Positions 8,313-12,750 are shown, numbered from the stretch's first letter. The stretch is 64,000 nt of DNA from an uncultured Campylobacterota bacterium (GCA_937141405.1 CAKZQQ010000005.1:372001-436000); one strand, 5' to 3'. Notes: a model not told the origin generated them from the letters alone. Translations and numbers: made by a program.

Positions 8313-8334
8313 TCCTCGACTTTTATATTCTGTC

Positions 8335-8355
8335 ATTCTGAACTTGATTCAGAAT
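8335..8355. repeat. Palindromic element ATTCTGAA-n5-TTCAGAAT
   Basis: An 8-bp perfect inverted repeat with a 5-base loop lies between the lysine-rich gene and the toxin gene. The wider sequence (TGTCATTCTGAACTTGATTC and onward) looks like a dispersed palindromic repeat unit; only one copy is in this window. Confidence 0.5.
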
Positions 8356-8401
8356 CTTCACAGGTGGAGATTCAACGCCTAACCCTTATATAGACAATTT
8401 A

Positions 8402-8641
8402 CTACTTGTAAATGTCACCTCTACTATCAACTTTCAATATCTGTATCTCTTCTTCATTCATATGAAAAAGTATTCTATATTTCGATACTCTCATTCTATA
8501 AATAGGAGGTATATCATTACCTGACATTTTTTTAACGTCTCCATTTGGAAGATTTTGAATAGCTTCGTAAATTTTTACCTGAAGTTTTCTATCATATTTA
8601 GAAAATTTCTTTTCAAATGTTTTTGAATATGATATTTTCAT
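8402..8641 (-). CDS. RelE/ParE-family toxin
   Basis: A 79-residue basic protein with the RelE/ParE layout: N-terminal strand and helix (ISYSKTFEKKFSKYDRKLQVKIYEAIQNL), then beta strands containing YRMRVSKYRILFHMNEEEIQILKVDSRGDIYK. RMRVSKYRILF matches the conserved R-x-R-x-G-x-Y-R-x-x-Y strand, with Gly replaced by Ser. RelE-type members cut mRNA at the ribosome, ParE-type members poison gyrase; sequence alone does not decide. Its ATG overlaps the antitoxin stop by four bases (8638-8641), so translation is coupled. It forms the last cassette of the array. Confidence 0.88.
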   Translation of the reverse strand: MKISYSKTFEKKFSKYDRKLQVKIYEAIQNLPNGDVKKMSGNDIPPIYRMRVSKYRILFHMNEEEIQILKVDSRGDIYK

Positions 8642-8886
8642 AAATTAAATTTAGATTTAAAATCTTCATTTGAAGAAAATTCATCATTTTTCAATATAGA
8701 TAATATTTCTTTTTCATCGTCTGCTTCAAGCAGTAATATAGCTTGTTGTTTTGTTTTAGTATCTTTTGCTAGATACTCACTAAGACTTTCTCTTATAATT
8801 TGAGAGATTGATTTTTTTTCAATAAAACTTACAGCTCGTGCTTGTTCATATAATGTTTCATCAATAGTTAAATTTAATCTATGCAT
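8638..8886 (-). CDS. Ribbon-helix-helix-type antitoxin
   Basis: An 82-residue protein with an N-terminal DNA-binding strand HRLNLTIDETLYEQARAVS and helices around KSISQIIRESLSEYLA, the pattern of ribbon-helix-helix (MetJ/Arc/CopG) antitoxins. The acidic C-terminal half (LLLEADDEKEILSILKNDEF) is the likely toxin-neutralising tail. AAGGAG precedes the ATG, and a TATAAT box lies at 8924-8919 on the minus strand, so the operon has its own promoter inside the cassette and would be autorepressed, as is usual for these modules. Confidence 0.85.
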   Translation of the reverse strand: MHRLNLTIDETLYEQARAVSFIEKKSISQIIRESLSEYLAKDTKTKQQAILLLEADDEKEILSILKNDEFSSNEDFKSKFNL

Positions 8887-8918
8887 AAATACTCCTTTAC
8901 ATAGTGATGTATAGATGT

Positions 8919-8924
8919 ATTATA
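8919..8924 (-). promoter_or_regulatory. -10 box (TATAAT) for the toxin-antitoxin operon
   Basis: A perfect TATAAT on the minus strand 33 bases before the antitoxin ATG, in very AT-rich sequence. It lies inside the cassette, downstream of the attC-like site at 8969-9037. Confidence 0.6.
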
Positions 8925-8968
8925 ACATATTTAATTAAATAATGATATATAAATTTTAAAAGTCTTTT

Positions 8969-9037
8969 GTCTAACGTTTAAAATGAGCCGATGAATTGCC
9001 CGCAGGGTAATTTATTGGCTCCTCTGATTTGTTAGCT
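8969..9037 (-). repeat. attC-like recombination site (after the TauE cassette)
   Basis: A 69-base imperfect palindrome. On the minus strand it runs from AGCTAAC to GTTAGAC; the last is a perfect GTTRRRY core. The arms GGAGCCAATAAATTACCC and GGGCAATTCATCGGCTC pair around a 3-base loop, with unpaired bulges as in real attC sites. The TauE stop codon lies inside its left end. It shares about 57 of 69 positions with the site at 10869-10937. Confidence 0.85.
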
Positions 9038-9838
9038 CACTGCTTCTTTCTTTTGGTGACTAAATATCTTGTAAGCCGAAATTATCAGTACAAGTGCCAA
9101 TAGCAATACCAATACATCACTCGAAATGACCCCTAGCAGTGCCGAACCTGCAGCGGCACCAATAATCGACCCGACACCCAAAGCAATGAACAAGTTCCGC
9201 TCTTCACGCAATACGATAAATGCCTGGCTTTTTGTGTATCTGGCAAACCCGACCAGCATAGTTGGAAGGCTAATTGCCAATGAAAGACTGCCTGCGATTT
9301 TTACATCGACACCGTAAAGAAGAACAATGACGGGGATCAAAAGTTCTCCACCTGCAACCCCAAGCATCGAAGCTACGACACCGATACCAAATCCCGCTAC
9401 GATACCCGCGATAATTTCTATGAGCCAAGAGTCAAAAAGAGCTCCATTCTGATCCTGTAAAAACCAGTGCTCCAGTATTAGGACTGCGGCAAGAAACAGT
9501 AATAATGCAAGCACAATGCGATCAAGCGTCTGTTCACTGATCTTCATAGCAATGCCCGCTGCGATCCACGCACCTGCCAACGATCCAAAAAGTAGGTTAA
9601 TAATAATACTTTTGTATTCCCAAATCTGTTCAAAAGGGGTTTCATGTGAGCGAAAAATCAGTGCAAAGAAGACAACAATCAGCGAAGTGGCTTTATTGAG
9701 TATTACCGCTTTGAGGGTATCTAGCCGAAAAAGCCCCTTGAGAATCGGCAGCCGAAATTCCGCTCCGCCCAGACCGATAAGTCCTGCCAGTGTCGCAACA
9801 GCACCCCCGGCACCGAATCCTTGAAAAAAACGCTTCAT
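9032..9838 (-). CDS. TauE/SafE-family permease on a cassette
   Basis: A 268-residue integral membrane protein with about eight hydrophobic helices and the two internal TauE/SafE repeats: GGAVATLAGLIGLGGAEFRLPIL (residues 12-34) and GVVASMLGVAGGELLIPVIVLLYGVDVKIAGSLSLA (about 155-190). Members export sulfite, sulfoacetate or related organosulfur anions. It is the fifth cassette, flanked by attC-like sites on both sides, with the stop inside one of them. Its base composition is visibly richer in G+C than the neighbouring cassettes (35 of 60 bases at 9121-9180 against 21 of 60 at 10081-10140), pointing to a different donor. Two other TauE-like genes in the window (33631 and 47924) are not close relatives by eye. 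Confidence 0.88.
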   Translation of the reverse strand: MKRFFQGFGAGGAVATLAGLIGLGGAEFRLPILKGLFRLDTLKAVILNKATSLIVVFFALIFRSHETPFEQIWEYKSIIINLLFGSLAGAWIAAGIAMKISEQTLDRIVLALLLFLAAVLILEHWFLQDQNGALFDSWLIEIIAGIVAGFGIGVVASMLGVAGGELLIPVIVLLYGVDVKIAGSLSLAISLPTMLVGFARYTKSQAFIVLREERNLFIALGVGSIIGAAAGSALLGVISSDVLVLLLALVLIISAYKIFSHQKKEAVS

Positions 9839-9890
9839 ATCGAGATGAACCCTTTAATTTTTTTCATAGACATTTAACCTCTTTATCTTT

Positions 9891-9957
9891 AGCTAACGTT
9901 TGAATACACTAATAAAGTTCCGTAGGTACTTTATTAGTGTGCTATGTTTTGTTATAT
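9891..9957 (-). repeat. attC-like recombination site (after the DUF2806 cassette)
   Basis: A 67-base imperfect palindrome. On the minus strand it runs from ATATAAC to GTTAGCT, with arms CACACTAATAAAGT and ACTTTATTAGTGT around the loop ACCTACGGA. The sequence differs from the other sites but the fold and end cores are the same, as is normal for attC sites. Confidence 0.82.
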
Positions 9958-10850
9958 ATTTTATTGCTTAATGGTTCTGATAAAATTATATTTTTTTTGA
10001 AAATTTTTTCTACAATATAATGATAAAAGTCATCTATATATTCATTTCTATTATTGGTTGCTTCTTTCATATTAGGATAGTTTACTCGTGCTAAGTCTGC
10101 TCCAATTTTTGTTAAGTTTACCATCCCAGTTTGAATTTCATAAGGATTGATATTTTTGAAATCTAAGTTTAAAACTCTTCCGAAGTATTCTATACTAATA
10201 GTGTCATTCTGAGATATTTTTTTAAATCCGCTTAAATGACTAAAGCTAATGAGACCTATTTCATCTAAATGACTTAAGGTACTAAAGGTTATATTATTGT
10301 TTTTATAAATTTGATTATCTTGATAATCTAGAATAAATGGTTGATAATCACCAATGATCCAGCAATATTTTAACAGGTTATCAAATAGTAACGCATCACT
10401 TTTGTCTAAAGTCGAAATAAATTCTATCGTTCTTTTAGAAAAAGTTCCAGGATTATTTGACTCTCCAGCTAATATTTGTGCCCAAAGTGTTTGCATTTCT
10501 TCATCTGATATTAGTTTACACTTATCAAAAAAGTTACTAACCCAGTCATCTTCTATATTTTCTGGATTTGCATTTTCTTCTAGTGAAGAAAATGATTTTT
10601 CAGTTATACTCTCTATATTCTCTTGTTTTTTTATTTCTTCAGTTACTAATCTATTTAAGGCTCTCTTTTGAATGTCTTCAATTTCTAAATCCATTAAAGC
10701 TTTTGTTTTTGATGCCTCAGCTTCTGCAATTGCTTTTTGTTTTATTCTTCTTGGTTCATAAACGATACCAATAGCATTAGAAATTTTTTCAACTAATACA
10801 GTTGCTGGCTTTGATAGTTTTCCAACATCAACTAATGATACATTTGCCAT
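9942..10850 (-). CDS. DUF2806-family protein on a cassette
   Basis: A 302-residue soluble protein. The middle part (about residues 75-160) holds the conserved block QENIESITEKSF, then IEDDWVSNFFDKCKLISDEE and WAQILAGESNNPGTFSKRT, which I recognise as the DUF2806 family of unknown function. The N-terminal region is helical and charged; the C-terminus is variable. Start choice: the reading frame opens at 10877 inside the attC-like core, but AAGGA lies six bases before the ATG at 10850 (MANVSLVDVGK), which avoids the site and is preferred. It is low in G+C. Members are often in mobile or accessory regions; a role in defence or stress is possible but unproven. Confidence 0.8.
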   Translation of the reverse strand: MANVSLVDVGKLSKPATVLVEKISNAIGIVYEPRRIKQKAIAEAEASKTKALMDLEIEDIQKRALNRLVTEEIKKQENIESITEKSFSSLEENANPENIEDDWVSNFFDKCKLISDEEMQTLWAQILAGESNNPGTFSKRTIEFISTLDKSDALLFDNLLKYCWIIGDYQPFILDYQDNQIYKNNNITFSTLSHLDEIGLISFSHLSGFKKISQNDTISIEYFGRVLNLDFKNINPYEIQTGMVNLTKIGADLARVNYPNMKEATNNRNEYIDDFYHYIVEKIFKKNIILSEPLSNKIYNKT

Positions 10851-10868
10851 TCGATTTCCTTCTTTTAT

Positions 10869-10937
10869 ATATAACATTTAAAATGAGCCGATAAATTGCC
10901 CATCGGGTAAATTATTGGCTCCAATGTTTTGTTAGAT
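10869..10937 (-). repeat. attC-like recombination site (after the NIPSNAP cassette)
   Basis: A 69-base imperfect palindrome reading ATCTAAC ... GTTATAT on the minus strand; the left box ATCTAAC is a perfect RYYYAAC. The arms TTGGAGCCAATAATTTACCC and GGGCAATTTATCGGCTC pair. Same length and mostly same sequence as the site at 8969-9037, so both belong to one attC subfamily. Confidence 0.85.
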
Positions 10938-10954
10938 TTGTTATTTTTTCCAAA

Positions 10955-11269
10955 TTATTTTATTGGTGAAAAAGAGGATGGTGTAATTATTCTTGATTCT
11001 TGTTTTTCAAGCATAGGCAAAGCTTTTGGAATAAAATTTTTCAACCAATCTTCATCTTTATACAATTCTTCTCTTTTTAAAACTCTTTCATTTAAGTCAT
11101 TATATGACCAAATATGTATTATTTGATTTAACTCTCCACTTTCAGTATGCCAATATCCAATAAGTTGTGCATACTTTGAAATAATTGGCATACCAACTTT
11201 TTCAAAATGATCAATATATTCACCAAGTTTTCCAATTTTTATTGTATATGTTCTCATTTCAAAAACCAT
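10955..11269 (-). CDS. NIPSNAP-family protein on a cassette
   Basis: A 104-residue protein starting MVFEMRTYTIKIGKLGEYI, the typical beginning of NIPSNAP-domain (dimeric alpha-beta barrel) proteins, with the second strand region IGYWHTESGELNQIIHIWSY and the closing EWLKNF-like helix. AAGGAG precedes the ATG. Bacterial NIPSNAP proteins have no settled function; the fold is shared with small monooxygenases and EthD-like proteins. It lies between two attC-like sites. Confidence 0.85.
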   Translation of the reverse strand: MVFEMRTYTIKIGKLGEYIDHFEKVGMPIISKYAQLIGYWHTESGELNQIIHIWSYNDLNERVLKREELYKDEDWLKNFIPKALPMLEKQESRIITPSSFSPIK

Positions 11270-11301
11270 AATTAACTCCTTATATTTTATACTAATTTTT
11301 C

Positions 11302-11460
11302 ATCTAACGGCAGTGCTGAGCGACACTCCAAAAAAAGTATATGAAAGCGTAGCTTTCGATATGCTTATTGAAAGGAGTGGGAAAGAGTGTTCGCTCCTGC
11401 GATTTGTTCTCGACGCCGAAGGCGGAGAGGACAAAAACTCGCTCAGCACTGCCGTTCTCA
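11302..11460 (-). repeat. Long attC-like site of a geneless cassette
   Basis: On the minus strand the ends are TGAGAAC (11460 side) and GTTAGAT (11302 side). Long outer arms AACGGCAGTGCTGAGCGA and its complement pair exactly over 18 bases, and several smaller hairpins fill the interior (for example a GAAAGC-TA-GCTTTC type at about 11343-11358 and one at 11411-11427). I find no credible gene here. The 314-base gap between genes (11270-11583) is filled by this and the next site. Confidence 0.7.
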
Positions 11461-11479
11461 CTTGAGCCGTAGGCGAAAG

Positions 11480-11578
11480 TGAGAACGCCTCATTAAGAGG
11501 CAAAAAATAGTTGGTTAAAATAAGCGACGCAGGAGCAAAAACCAACTATTTTTTGTCCTTTTGAATGACTTGTTATAT
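11480..11578 (-). repeat. attC-like recombination site (after cassette 1)
   Basis: A 99-base imperfect palindrome. On the minus strand it starts ATATAAC just after the stop of the cassette-1 gene. The inner arms AAAAAATAGTTGGTT and AACCAACTATTTTTT pair exactly around a GC-rich loop. The outer arms are bulged, and the far end reads GTTCTCA, a poor core. It is joined to the next site by a palindrome at 11454-11486 (GTTCTCACTT and AAGTGAGAAC). Confidence 0.7.
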
Positions 11579-11583
11579 TCCGA

Positions 11584-11979
11584 TTACTCAAAACTAACTG
11601 AGTTTATTTGAGGCTCAGATTCTAATTTAGATTTTAAAAATAACACACATTCATCTGACTTATTTAACTTTTCTCGACCAAGCAACTTTTCTTTAAAAGA
11701 ACGCTGCTTATCAATTTGAAAAATCCACTCTAATTCTGATTTTGGATCATCGCCATCTTCGAAATAGGTTGATGCACCAAGCATATATTGGCGACCGTGC
11801 CATGAAATATAACTATACCATCCCCAATCTTCTGCATCTGGTTCCGTTAATTCGAAATCAGTACCTATTTCTGATTTTAGCCATTTCAAGAAGGATTCGC
11901 CAAAAATAGGATTTATTGGATTTTCACGTTCTTTAGATATGTCAAACATCGATGATTTGAAACTTATGGCAATATGCAC
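11584..11979 (-). CDS. Hypothetical cassette protein, 131 residues (first cassette)
   Basis: A soluble acidic protein with no signal or membrane segment. It starts at a GTG (11979) with AGGAGG five bases upstream, immediately after the attI-like core. DAEDWGWYSYISWHGRQYML (residues 48-67) is a striking aromatic block, followed by an acidic loop, ELEWIFQID, and a lysine-rich helix. I know similar short proteins from integron cassettes and contact-dependent immunity loci but cannot name a family. Being first after the attI-like region, it would be the most strongly expressed cassette if the cassette promoter is active. Confidence 0.7.
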   Translation of the reverse strand: MHIAISFKSSMFDISKERENPINPIFGESFLKWLKSEIGTDFELTEPDAEDWGWYSYISWHGRQYMLGASTYFEDGDDPKSELEWIFQIDKQRSFKEKLLGREKLNKSDECVLFLKSKLESEPQINSVSFE

Positions 11980-12257
11980 GATTCCCTCCTAGGCATATAA
12001 CTATTTATTAGGGGAACAAAATGTCCCACTATTACTCTATTTTTCATATTGGTAGTATATCAAAAATGTCCGGCTATTTTAAAAAAGTATGACAATTTGC
12101 CATATTTTTACTACTTTTTTATCAGTTTTCATAGAATGATAAAAATATCTTATGTCCTTTTAGTCGGATATGAGCCAATATTCGGACACTTTGTTCCCTT
12201 ATTTATCAAATACGGACAATAGAGGACATTGTGTCCTGCTATTTTTGGGAGGAAAAT
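11980..12257. promoter_or_regulatory. attI-like region with cassette and integrase promoter sequences
   Basis: A 278-base gap between cassette 1 and the integrase remnant. The core GTTATAT lies at 12001-11995 on the minus strand. GGACA or its complement TGTCC occurs seven times: at about 12023, 12068, 12154, 12184, 12214, 12224 and 12232. A 16-base block GGGAACAAAATGTCCC (12012-12027) recurs inverted with 14 matches at 12183-12198, and AGGACATTGTGTCCT (12223-12237) is a perfect palindrome just before the integrase ribosome site. A TATACT box on the minus strand at 12059-12054 with TTAAAA 17 bases upstream is a candidate cassette promoter. These motifs could be integrase-binding or repressor sites. 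Confidence 0.6.
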
Positions 12258-12368
12258 ATGAAAGTAAAGAAAAAACTGCTCGACATAGTCCGTGACAAGA
12301 TTCGCTTCAAACATTACAGCATAAAAACAGAGAAATCTTATATCGGCTGGATCAAGCATTATATCTTC
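12258..12368 (+). pseudogene. intI: Integron integrase (IntI), N-terminal fragment
   Basis: The first 37 residues match the N-terminal core-binding part of IntI tyrosine recombinases: LLDIVRDKIRFKHYSIKTEK, then SYIGWIKHYIF. In intact IntI this is followed by F-H-x-K-RHP and a catalytic domain with R-H-R-Y. Here the similarity ends at about 12368 and the frame runs into unrelated sequence, stopping at 12485, so the entire catalytic domain is missing. GGGAGG lies five bases before the ATG, so the promoter and ribosome site survive. It points away from the cassettes, the canonical orientation. The loss looks like a deletion or rearrangement that joined it to a cassette fragment. Confidence 0.82.
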
Positions 12369-12443
12369 AAATCGAATGATTCCAGAGTCTCCATTCTCAA
12401 ATTTTTGAACAAATACTTGATATCCCATAATCTCTCTTGTCAT
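12369..12443 (-). pseudogene. Truncated 5' end of a cassette gene fused to the intI remnant
   Basis: On the minus strand a frame starts MTREIMGYQVFVQKFENGDS with its ATG overlapping a GTTAGAT core (12448-12442), exactly as a cassette gene would. After about 25 residues it runs into the reverse complement of the integrase remnant and becomes meaningless, although the frame stays open to 12150. I read it as the head of a lost cassette gene, not a working protein. No family is recognised. Confidence 0.5.
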
Positions 12444-12504
12444 CTAACTATTTATTCAACCTACATTATATGTAAAATAGCCTGAAAATCAATAAATAGC
12501 ATAC
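12442..12504 (-). repeat. Degenerate attC-like palindrome right of the intI remnant
   Basis: GTTAGAT at 12448-12442 on the minus strand, and paired arms CTATTTATT (12449-12456 region) and AATAAATAG (12491-12499) with an inner TACAT/ATGTA hairpin. The left box (ATGCTAT) departs from the consensus RYYYAAC. TAACTATTTATT is also present at the attI-like core at 11998-12009, so the two sites share sequence outside the crossover point. Confidence 0.5.
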
Positions 12505-12529
12505 ATTAAATATGTCGTATATCAAAATA

Positions 12530-12561
12530 AATATAAATGCCTTCAATAAGGCGTTTATATT
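12530..12561. terminator. Strong stem-loop between the array and tRNA-Ser
   Basis: AATATAAATGCCTT and AAGGCGTTTATATT form a 14-bp stem with one G-T pair and a CAAT loop. It lies 100 bases downstream of the minus-strand tRNA-Ser, so it could end that transcript; no gene lies in 12505-12659. Confidence 0.55.
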
Positions 12562-12659: not shown

Positions 12660-12750
12660 TGGCGGACAGTGAGGGATTCGAACCCTCGGTACCCTTACGA
12701 GTACGCATCCTTAGCAGGGATGTGGTTTCAGCCAACTCACCCAACTGTCC
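12660..12750 (-). tRNA. tRNA-Ser (anticodon GCT)
   Basis: On the minus strand a 91-base sequence begins GGACAGTTGGGTGAGTTGGC and ends with ACTGTCC, discriminator G and encoded CCA. The 7-bp acceptor stem pairs exactly, the T arm contains GGTTCGAATCC, the anticodon loop reads CTGCTAA (anticodon GCT, reads AGC/AGU), and a long variable arm (GTACTCGTAAGGGTAC region) is present, all typical of serine tRNA. It lies next to the integron array. Confidence 0.96.

What the first reader, a model, noticed from the sequence alone, without database searches (positions are those of the whole stretch)
8377..12504. Degenerate integron cassette array in a Campylobacterota chromosome
Six successive cassettes on one strand (five carrying genes, one geneless) are each followed by a palindromic site with GTTRRRY-like ends. 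The array is headed by an attI-like region and an integron integrase remnant in divergent orientation. Integrons are best known in Gammaproteobacteria; to my knowledge they are uncommon in Campylobacterota. The cassettes carry an unknown protein, a NIPSNAP protein, a DUF2806 protein, a TauE permease and a toxin-antitoxin pair. The island lies beside tRNA-Ser. The attC reading and the intI fragment come from the sequence; the whole as one integron is an inference from known architecture.
Basis: partly seen in the sequence, partly recalled or inferred. Interest (0 to 1): 0.88.

Follow-up and report, generated by a model that had tools for sequence, protein, structure and literature searches.

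The report
Decayed double integron with non-coding cassettes
This stretch of a Sulfurovaceae (Campylobacterota) chromosome is the decayed remains of two joined integrons, DNA platforms that collect mobile genes; such platforms turn out to be common in this group, and one of its cassettes belongs to a widespread family that carries no gene and appears to be built for its DNA fold alone.

Summary
The finding is real. An attC covariance model trained only on relatives' arrays finds three attC sites on the minus strand (8969-9037, 9891-9957, 10869-10937; E 1e-15 to 2e-11). Two larger sites (11302-11412, 11480-11578) fit by motif and hairpin. The integrase is only 37 N-terminal codons (12258-12367); neither the host genome nor ten congeners hold a full one.

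Corrections: (1) Two attI sites of different types lie here: 11995-12257 beside the intI stump, and 12445-12559 beside tRNA-Ser. The 12-mer TAACTATTTATT occurs three times in the genome, each time at an array head. (2) Integrons are not uncommon here: full intI in 60 of 399 Campylobacterales genomes, attC in 134. (3) The terminal toxin-antitoxin pair has no attC.

In the closest relative the same borders enclose one different cassette. The DUF2806 cassette recurs, 83% identical in DNA, as a whole cassette in an intact integron of another family.

The novel part is the "geneless" cassette: a member of an apparently undescribed family of about 150-190 nt elements (49 of 389 genomes) with covarying stems that fold best on the bottom strand, the strand that recombines.

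The parts
12660..12750 (-). tRNA-Ser(GCT), conserved neighbour next to pyrF in this genus
   Evidence: ARAGORN; synteny
12445..12559 (-). attI_A (core AATAAATAGTT at 12446-12456), truncated, its own integrase lost
   Evidence: 88.7% over 115 bp to the attI of the G250 integron, 82% over 105 bp to that of G120; also present in the sister species L040
12369..12443 (-). start of a truncated cassette gene (MTREIMGYQVFVQKFENGDSGII) directly after attI_A, fused to the intI stump
   Evidence: ORF; homology to intI stops at 12367; sequence right after the crossover
12258..12367 (+). integron integrase remnant, first 37 codons
   Evidence: TIGR02249 positions 1-39 E 5.7e-7; PF13495 E 1.2e-7; DNA homology to intact intI genes up to 12367
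11995..12257 (-). attI_B (core at 11999-12009), head of the cassette array
   Evidence: 78% over 276 bp to the attI of G278; core shared with most relatives' attI
11584..11979 (-). cassette 1 gene, unknown protein
   Evidence: ORF; no family
11480..11578 (-). attC of cassette 1, long form
   Evidence: R''/R' boxes and a 16-nt perfect stem; below threshold in R1
11302..11486 (-). cassette 2, geneless: hairpin H1, then stem P1 enclosing H2 and the attC
   Evidence: R2 123.7 bits E 1.4e-25 (a training member); fold z -9.9; 82% over 156 nt to the first cassette of L147
10955..11269 (-). cassette 3 gene, NIPSNAP protein
   Evidence: PF07978 E 1.5e-27
10869..10937 (-). attC of cassette 3
   Evidence: R1 67.3 bits E 3.5e-14
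9942..10877 (-). cassette 4 gene, DUF2806 protein (likely start at 10850)
   Evidence: PF10987 E 4e-41; 82% identical to a cassette gene in G230
9891..9957 (-). attC of cassette 4
   Evidence: R1 56.4 bits E 2.1e-11
9032..9838 (-). cassette 5 gene, TauE/SafE-type permease
   Evidence: PF01925 E 1.1e-24
8969..9037 (-). attC of cassette 5, last recognisable attC
   Evidence: R1 73.3 bits E 1.1e-15
8638..8886 (-). antitoxin-like RHH/RelB protein
   Evidence: NF008412 E 3.9e-4, below the curated cut-off
8402..8641 (-). ParE-like toxin; no attC after it
   Evidence: PF05016 E 4.3e-6; no R1 hit between 8391 and 8969
8334..8391 (.). distal border of the island, shared with the sister species
   Evidence: 96.6% over 58 bp to L040; begins where the sister's attC ends; the repeat-like part up to about 8357 is dispersed in the genome, the rest is unique

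Best explanation
This is the decayed remnant of a composite chromosomal integron next to tRNA-Ser. Shown: attI_A, a truncated cassette gene, a 37-codon stump of an integrase, attI_B, five cassettes with attC sites (one of them without a gene) and a toxin-antitoxin pair, all oriented as integron arrays are, with no full integrase found in the genome. Inferred: two platforms of different origin came to lie in tandem; IntI loaded cassettes at the attI sites; a deletion between a cassette gene and intI_B (junction at 12367-12369) destroyed the second integrase, and the integrase that belonged to attI_A was lost as well. The array is now fixed unless an integrase acts in trans. Established for integrons in general: IntI recombines the folded bottom strand of attC with attI (PMC8352920).
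For: An attC model trained on relatives only hits the window at E 1e-15 to 2e-11 with the right polarity. Whole-genome scan: three attC here, seven at C6:391465-394937 and one at C5:127264. intI stump. The attI core 12-mer occurs three times in 1.75 Mb (reversed control 0), each time at an array head. attI_A and attI_B match the attI sites of different intact integrons. Sister species L040 shares the flanks up to the crossover point AATAAATAGTT on one side and from the end of its attC on the other, with one different cassette between. The DUF2806 cassette is 83.4% identical over 1064 bp, with both ends in attC, to a cassette in the intact integron of G230. No intI over the cut-off in any of 11 genomes of the genus, attC in 6 of 11.
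Against: The order of events is inferred. The two large attC sites are not found by the generic attC model. The toxin-antitoxin pair lacks an attC. The genome is a draft in 8 contigs (98% complete), so an intI in a gap cannot be excluded.
Confidence: 0.88

Rival explanations
1. An attC cluster made by off-target insertion of cassettes by an integrase elsewhere, with no local platform (one of the proposed origins of CALIN elements).
For: No full integrase remains in the genome; the lone attC at C5:127264 shows attC outside any platform.
Against: Two attI sites and an intI stump lie in the canonical position and orientation here; intI_B plus attI_B is 78% identical over 373 bp to an intact integron head.
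Confidence: 0.05
2. A genomic island integrated at tRNA-Ser by an ordinary phage-type tyrosine recombinase, with palindromes that only resemble attC.
For: It lies next to tRNA-Ser and a tyrosine recombinase fragment is present.
Against: No att-type duplication of the tRNA 3' end was seen and the island starts about 200 bp from the tRNA, at an attI core; the recombinase fragment matches the integron type and its attI; attC sites match at E 1e-11 or better.
Confidence: 0.03
3. For the geneless cassette: a structured RNA (leader, small RNA or promoter cassette) transcribed from the array, as shown for some gene-less cassettes of Vibrionaceae (PMC11014356).
For: 17 of 36 elements sit directly behind attI, where the cassette promoter is expected; strong conserved fold.
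Against: The bottom strand, not the sense strand, folds more stably in 33 of 33, and G-T pairs are more frequent on the bottom strand. An antisense RNA is not excluded by this.
Confidence: 0.3
4. The tandem attI arrangement is an assembly chimera of two arrays.
For: Repeated attC and attI sequences are known to mislead assemblies (PMC9024848), and the genome is a draft.
Against: The sister species, assembled separately, shows the same flank, attI_A and distal border; attI_A and attI_B differ in sequence.
Confidence: 0.07

Closest known systems
Degenerate sedentary chromosomal integron / CALIN (IntegronFinder classes)
   Same: Cluster of attC sites, attI, divergent intI remnant, cassettes with mostly one gene each
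   Different: Two attI sites of different types in tandem; no full intI in the genome; a second attI-headed array elsewhere in the genome
Intact Campylobacterales integrons
   Same: attI core and layout, attC sequence and fold, first part of intI, one shared cassette
   Different: Integrase reduced to 37 codons, two platforms joined
Gene-less (ORF-less) cassettes of Vibrionaceae and of oral Treponema integrons (PMC11014356, PMC6557892)
   Same: Cassettes with an attC and no recognisable gene
   Different: Conserved multi-stem architecture with covariation across genera, strand bias towards the bottom strand; promoter activity not tested here

Membership tests
Complete integron | Full-length integron integrase (IntI) | tested here: not met
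   Only TIGR02249 positions 1-39 in the window; no hit over the cut-off in the whole genome
CALIN (attC cluster without integrase) | At least two attC sites close together with no neighbouring intI | tested here: met
   Three attC by model R1 within 2 kb; the intI is a stump. The official IntegronFinder model was not available
Integron remnant | attI next to a divergent intI | tested here: met
   attI_B plus intI_B stump, 78% over 373 bp to L132; core shared with most relatives
Integron remnant | Cassettes in one orientation, each gene followed by attC | tested here: met
   Five of five cassettes between attI_B and 8969; not met for the toxin-antitoxin pair
Integron remnant | Cassettes exchanged at precise attI/attC junctions | tested here: met
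   L040 junctions; DUF2806 cassette shared with G230
Integron remnant | IntI-dependent recombination of these sites | not testable with these tools
   Needs an assay
Gene-less integron cassette | Bounded by attI or attC on the 5' side and ending in an attC | tested here: met
   Of 36 elements, 17 follow attI, 14 a clear attC, 1 another element of the family; 4 are unclear
Gene-less integron cassette | No conserved protein-coding gene | tested here: inconclusive
   The window copy is crossed by an 81-codon TTG frame that spans two attC sites and by a 50-codon frame; codon conservation in the family was not tested
Gene-less integron cassette (Vibrionaceae type) | Promoter activity | not tested
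   No expression data

The most novel reading that the evidence does not exclude
The geneless cassettes are a family of minimal mobile DNA elements made only of recombination structure. Selection acts on the folded bottom strand (with C(GNA)G loops), and they spread as passengers of integron integrases across Campylobacterota without carrying a gene. Their stem P1 and the canonical attC fold use the same bases, so the two folds exclude each other, which may gate recombination.
Probability: 0.4. Interest if true: 0.75.

Novelty: new variant of a known kind. Interest (0 to 1): 0.6.

Why it matters
It shows that integrons are a regular part of Campylobacterales genomes, gives attI and attC signatures for this order, and documents a lineage that kept cassettes after losing the integrase. 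The structured geneless cassette family gives a direct way to ask whether an integron cassette can persist on recombination alone, without a gene that helps its host.

Tried and rejected
A simple palindrome finder was used only to seed the attC model. One search's attC loop counts were discarded because alignment labels had overwritten locus names; they were redone (33 bottom against 1 top). The H1 counts come from alignment A3 and are not affected; one search failed for the same reason and was redone. A sense-strand RNA function of the geneless cassette was considered and found less likely. First-position enrichment (17 of 36) was considered, but I had no fair control for array length, so I do not claim it as significant. 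The toxin-antitoxin pair was tested as a cassette: no attC after it in the window, and its homologue in L057 has no attC in its 20-kb locus. Paper searches on Campylobacterota integrons gave only a mention in a list. Rfam has no family for the cassette.

Full report
What was checked. The window is part of a 1.75 Mb, 8-contig genome (98% complete) of an uncultured genus near Sulfurovum; the nearest named relatives are Campylobacterales and Sulfurovum MAGs.

attC sites. I built an attC model (R1) from 26 sites in relatives' arrays that have an integrase gene alongside, without any window sequence. It finds three window sites on the minus strand at E 1e-15 to 2e-11; weaker plus-strand scores fit the gene polarity. 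In the relatives' integrons it finds about 80 sites, and none in the loci L042-L044, L046, L095, L119, L128 and L149, which hold the same chromosomal neighbourhood. The window site at 8969 is up to 95% identical to sites of intact integrons in other families. The larger sites at 11302 and 11480 are not found by R1 at a useful score, but their boxes and stems fit, and the first belongs to a family described below.

Integrase and attI. The plus-strand frame from 12258 matches the first 39 positions of the integron integrase profile; homology to relatives stops at 12367. About 260 bp 5' of intI, most of the relatives' integrons carry the core AACTATTTATT. In the host genome the 12-mer TAACTATTTATT occurs three times, against zero for the reversed control: at 11998, at 12445, and at the head of a second, integrase-less array with seven attC sites on contig 6, beside mqnC. 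That second array includes a Cass2 protein (PF14526, integron-associated, E 7e-21) and a Phd/YoeB pair. The attI at 11995 is of the G278/G350 type (78%) and the attI at 12445 is of the G250/G120 type (89% and 82%). Two platforms of different type therefore lie in tandem, and the start of a cassette gene (12369-12443) is fused to the stump of the second integrase.

Junctions. In the closest relative (L040, pyrF 91% identical) the flank is collinear from pyrF through tRNA-Ser to 12445, exactly the attI core. One different gene with an attC (50.7 bits) follows, and then the window's distal border at 8391. The island is absent between tRNA-Ser and Spx in L128 and L095. The DUF2806 cassette gene is rare (6 of 399 genomes), yet the cassette is 83.4% identical over 1064 bp, with both ends in attC, to a cassette of the intact integron of G230, a member of another family. 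These are recombination-type junctions.

How common. Full intI is over the cut-off in 60 of 399 Campylobacterales genomes (75 at E <= 1e-40; 30 of 87 genera), attC in 134 of 399. In the window's own genus none of 11 genomes has an intI over the cut-off, while 6 of 11 keep attC sites. The phylum is listed among integron bearers in PMC8618304. The rarity claim is therefore wrong for this order.

The geneless cassette. The 181-nt element at 11306-11486 folds far better than shuffled sequence (z -9.9). Elements with the same architecture (a 5' hairpin H1, then a stem P1 that closes a hairpin H2 and the attC hairpin H3) occur in 49 of 389 genomes and 18 of 87 genera, often in identical-scoring copies (seven in G366, three in G264). 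On 33 distinct sequences 93% of cells pair, against 77% in shuffles and 32-52% in slid controls, with 131 cells changed on both sides against 40. Two cautions apply. My first finder required complementarity of H1 and P1, so the covariation of those two helices is partly selected for; helices 3 and 4 were not. And the alignment A3 was fitted to the model; the MAFFT alignment A2 of nine members gives the same picture. Of 36 elements, 17 follow attI directly and 14 a clear attC. The window region has no Rfam match for it.

Which strand matters. In 33 of 33 geneless elements the complement (bottom) strand folds more stably than the sense strand, with 2-7 G-T pairs against 0-2 in 18 representatives. 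H1 carries C(GNA)G on the bottom strand in 30 of 33. For ordinary attC sites the apex is C(GNA)G on the bottom strand in 33 and on the top strand in 1 of 90 (p 4e-9), and the bottom strand is more stable in 70 of 90. The sites are related, so the p-value is optimistic. The bottom strand is the one that integron integrases recombine (PMC8352920). I infer that selection acts on the folded DNA rather than on a sense RNA. That GNA triloops closed by C-G are unusually stable in DNA is background knowledge of mine, not tested here.

Verdict. An integron remnant: confident. Two tandem platforms of different type: well supported, with assembly error the main residual doubt. Structured geneless cassettes as a recombination-only mobile family: plausible, untested, and the part most worth following.

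Noticed in passing
G000:C6:391082-394937 (L167:6041-9938): Second integrase-less cassette array in the host genome, headed by an attI fragment of about 66 bp beside mqnC, with seven attC sites, a Cass2 protein, a transglutaminase-like protein and a Phd/YoeB pair.
   Followed up: partly
G000:C5:127264-127333 (L168:5265-5334): Lone attC (68.7 bits), 95% identical over 66 nt to the window attC at 8969.
   Followed up: no
window 12009-12257: attI_B holds repeated palindromic motifs of the type GGACAnnnTGTCC, with similar motifs in several relatives' attI regions; possibly sites for IntI or for a regulator.
   Followed up: no
window 8323-8357: Dispersed repeat (TGTCATTCTGAACTTGATTCAGAATCT) at the distal border, with five more partial copies in the genome.
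   Followed up: partly
L057:4082-4478: Homologue of the window's RHH/ParE pair (81% DNA identity) in a Sulfurovum MAG with no attC in its 20-kb locus; the toxin gene there looks shortened.
   Followed up: partly
L040:6336-6947: The single cassette gene of the sister species is a 203-aa protein with paired Cys motifs and a weak HNH match (E 0.054).
   Followed up: no
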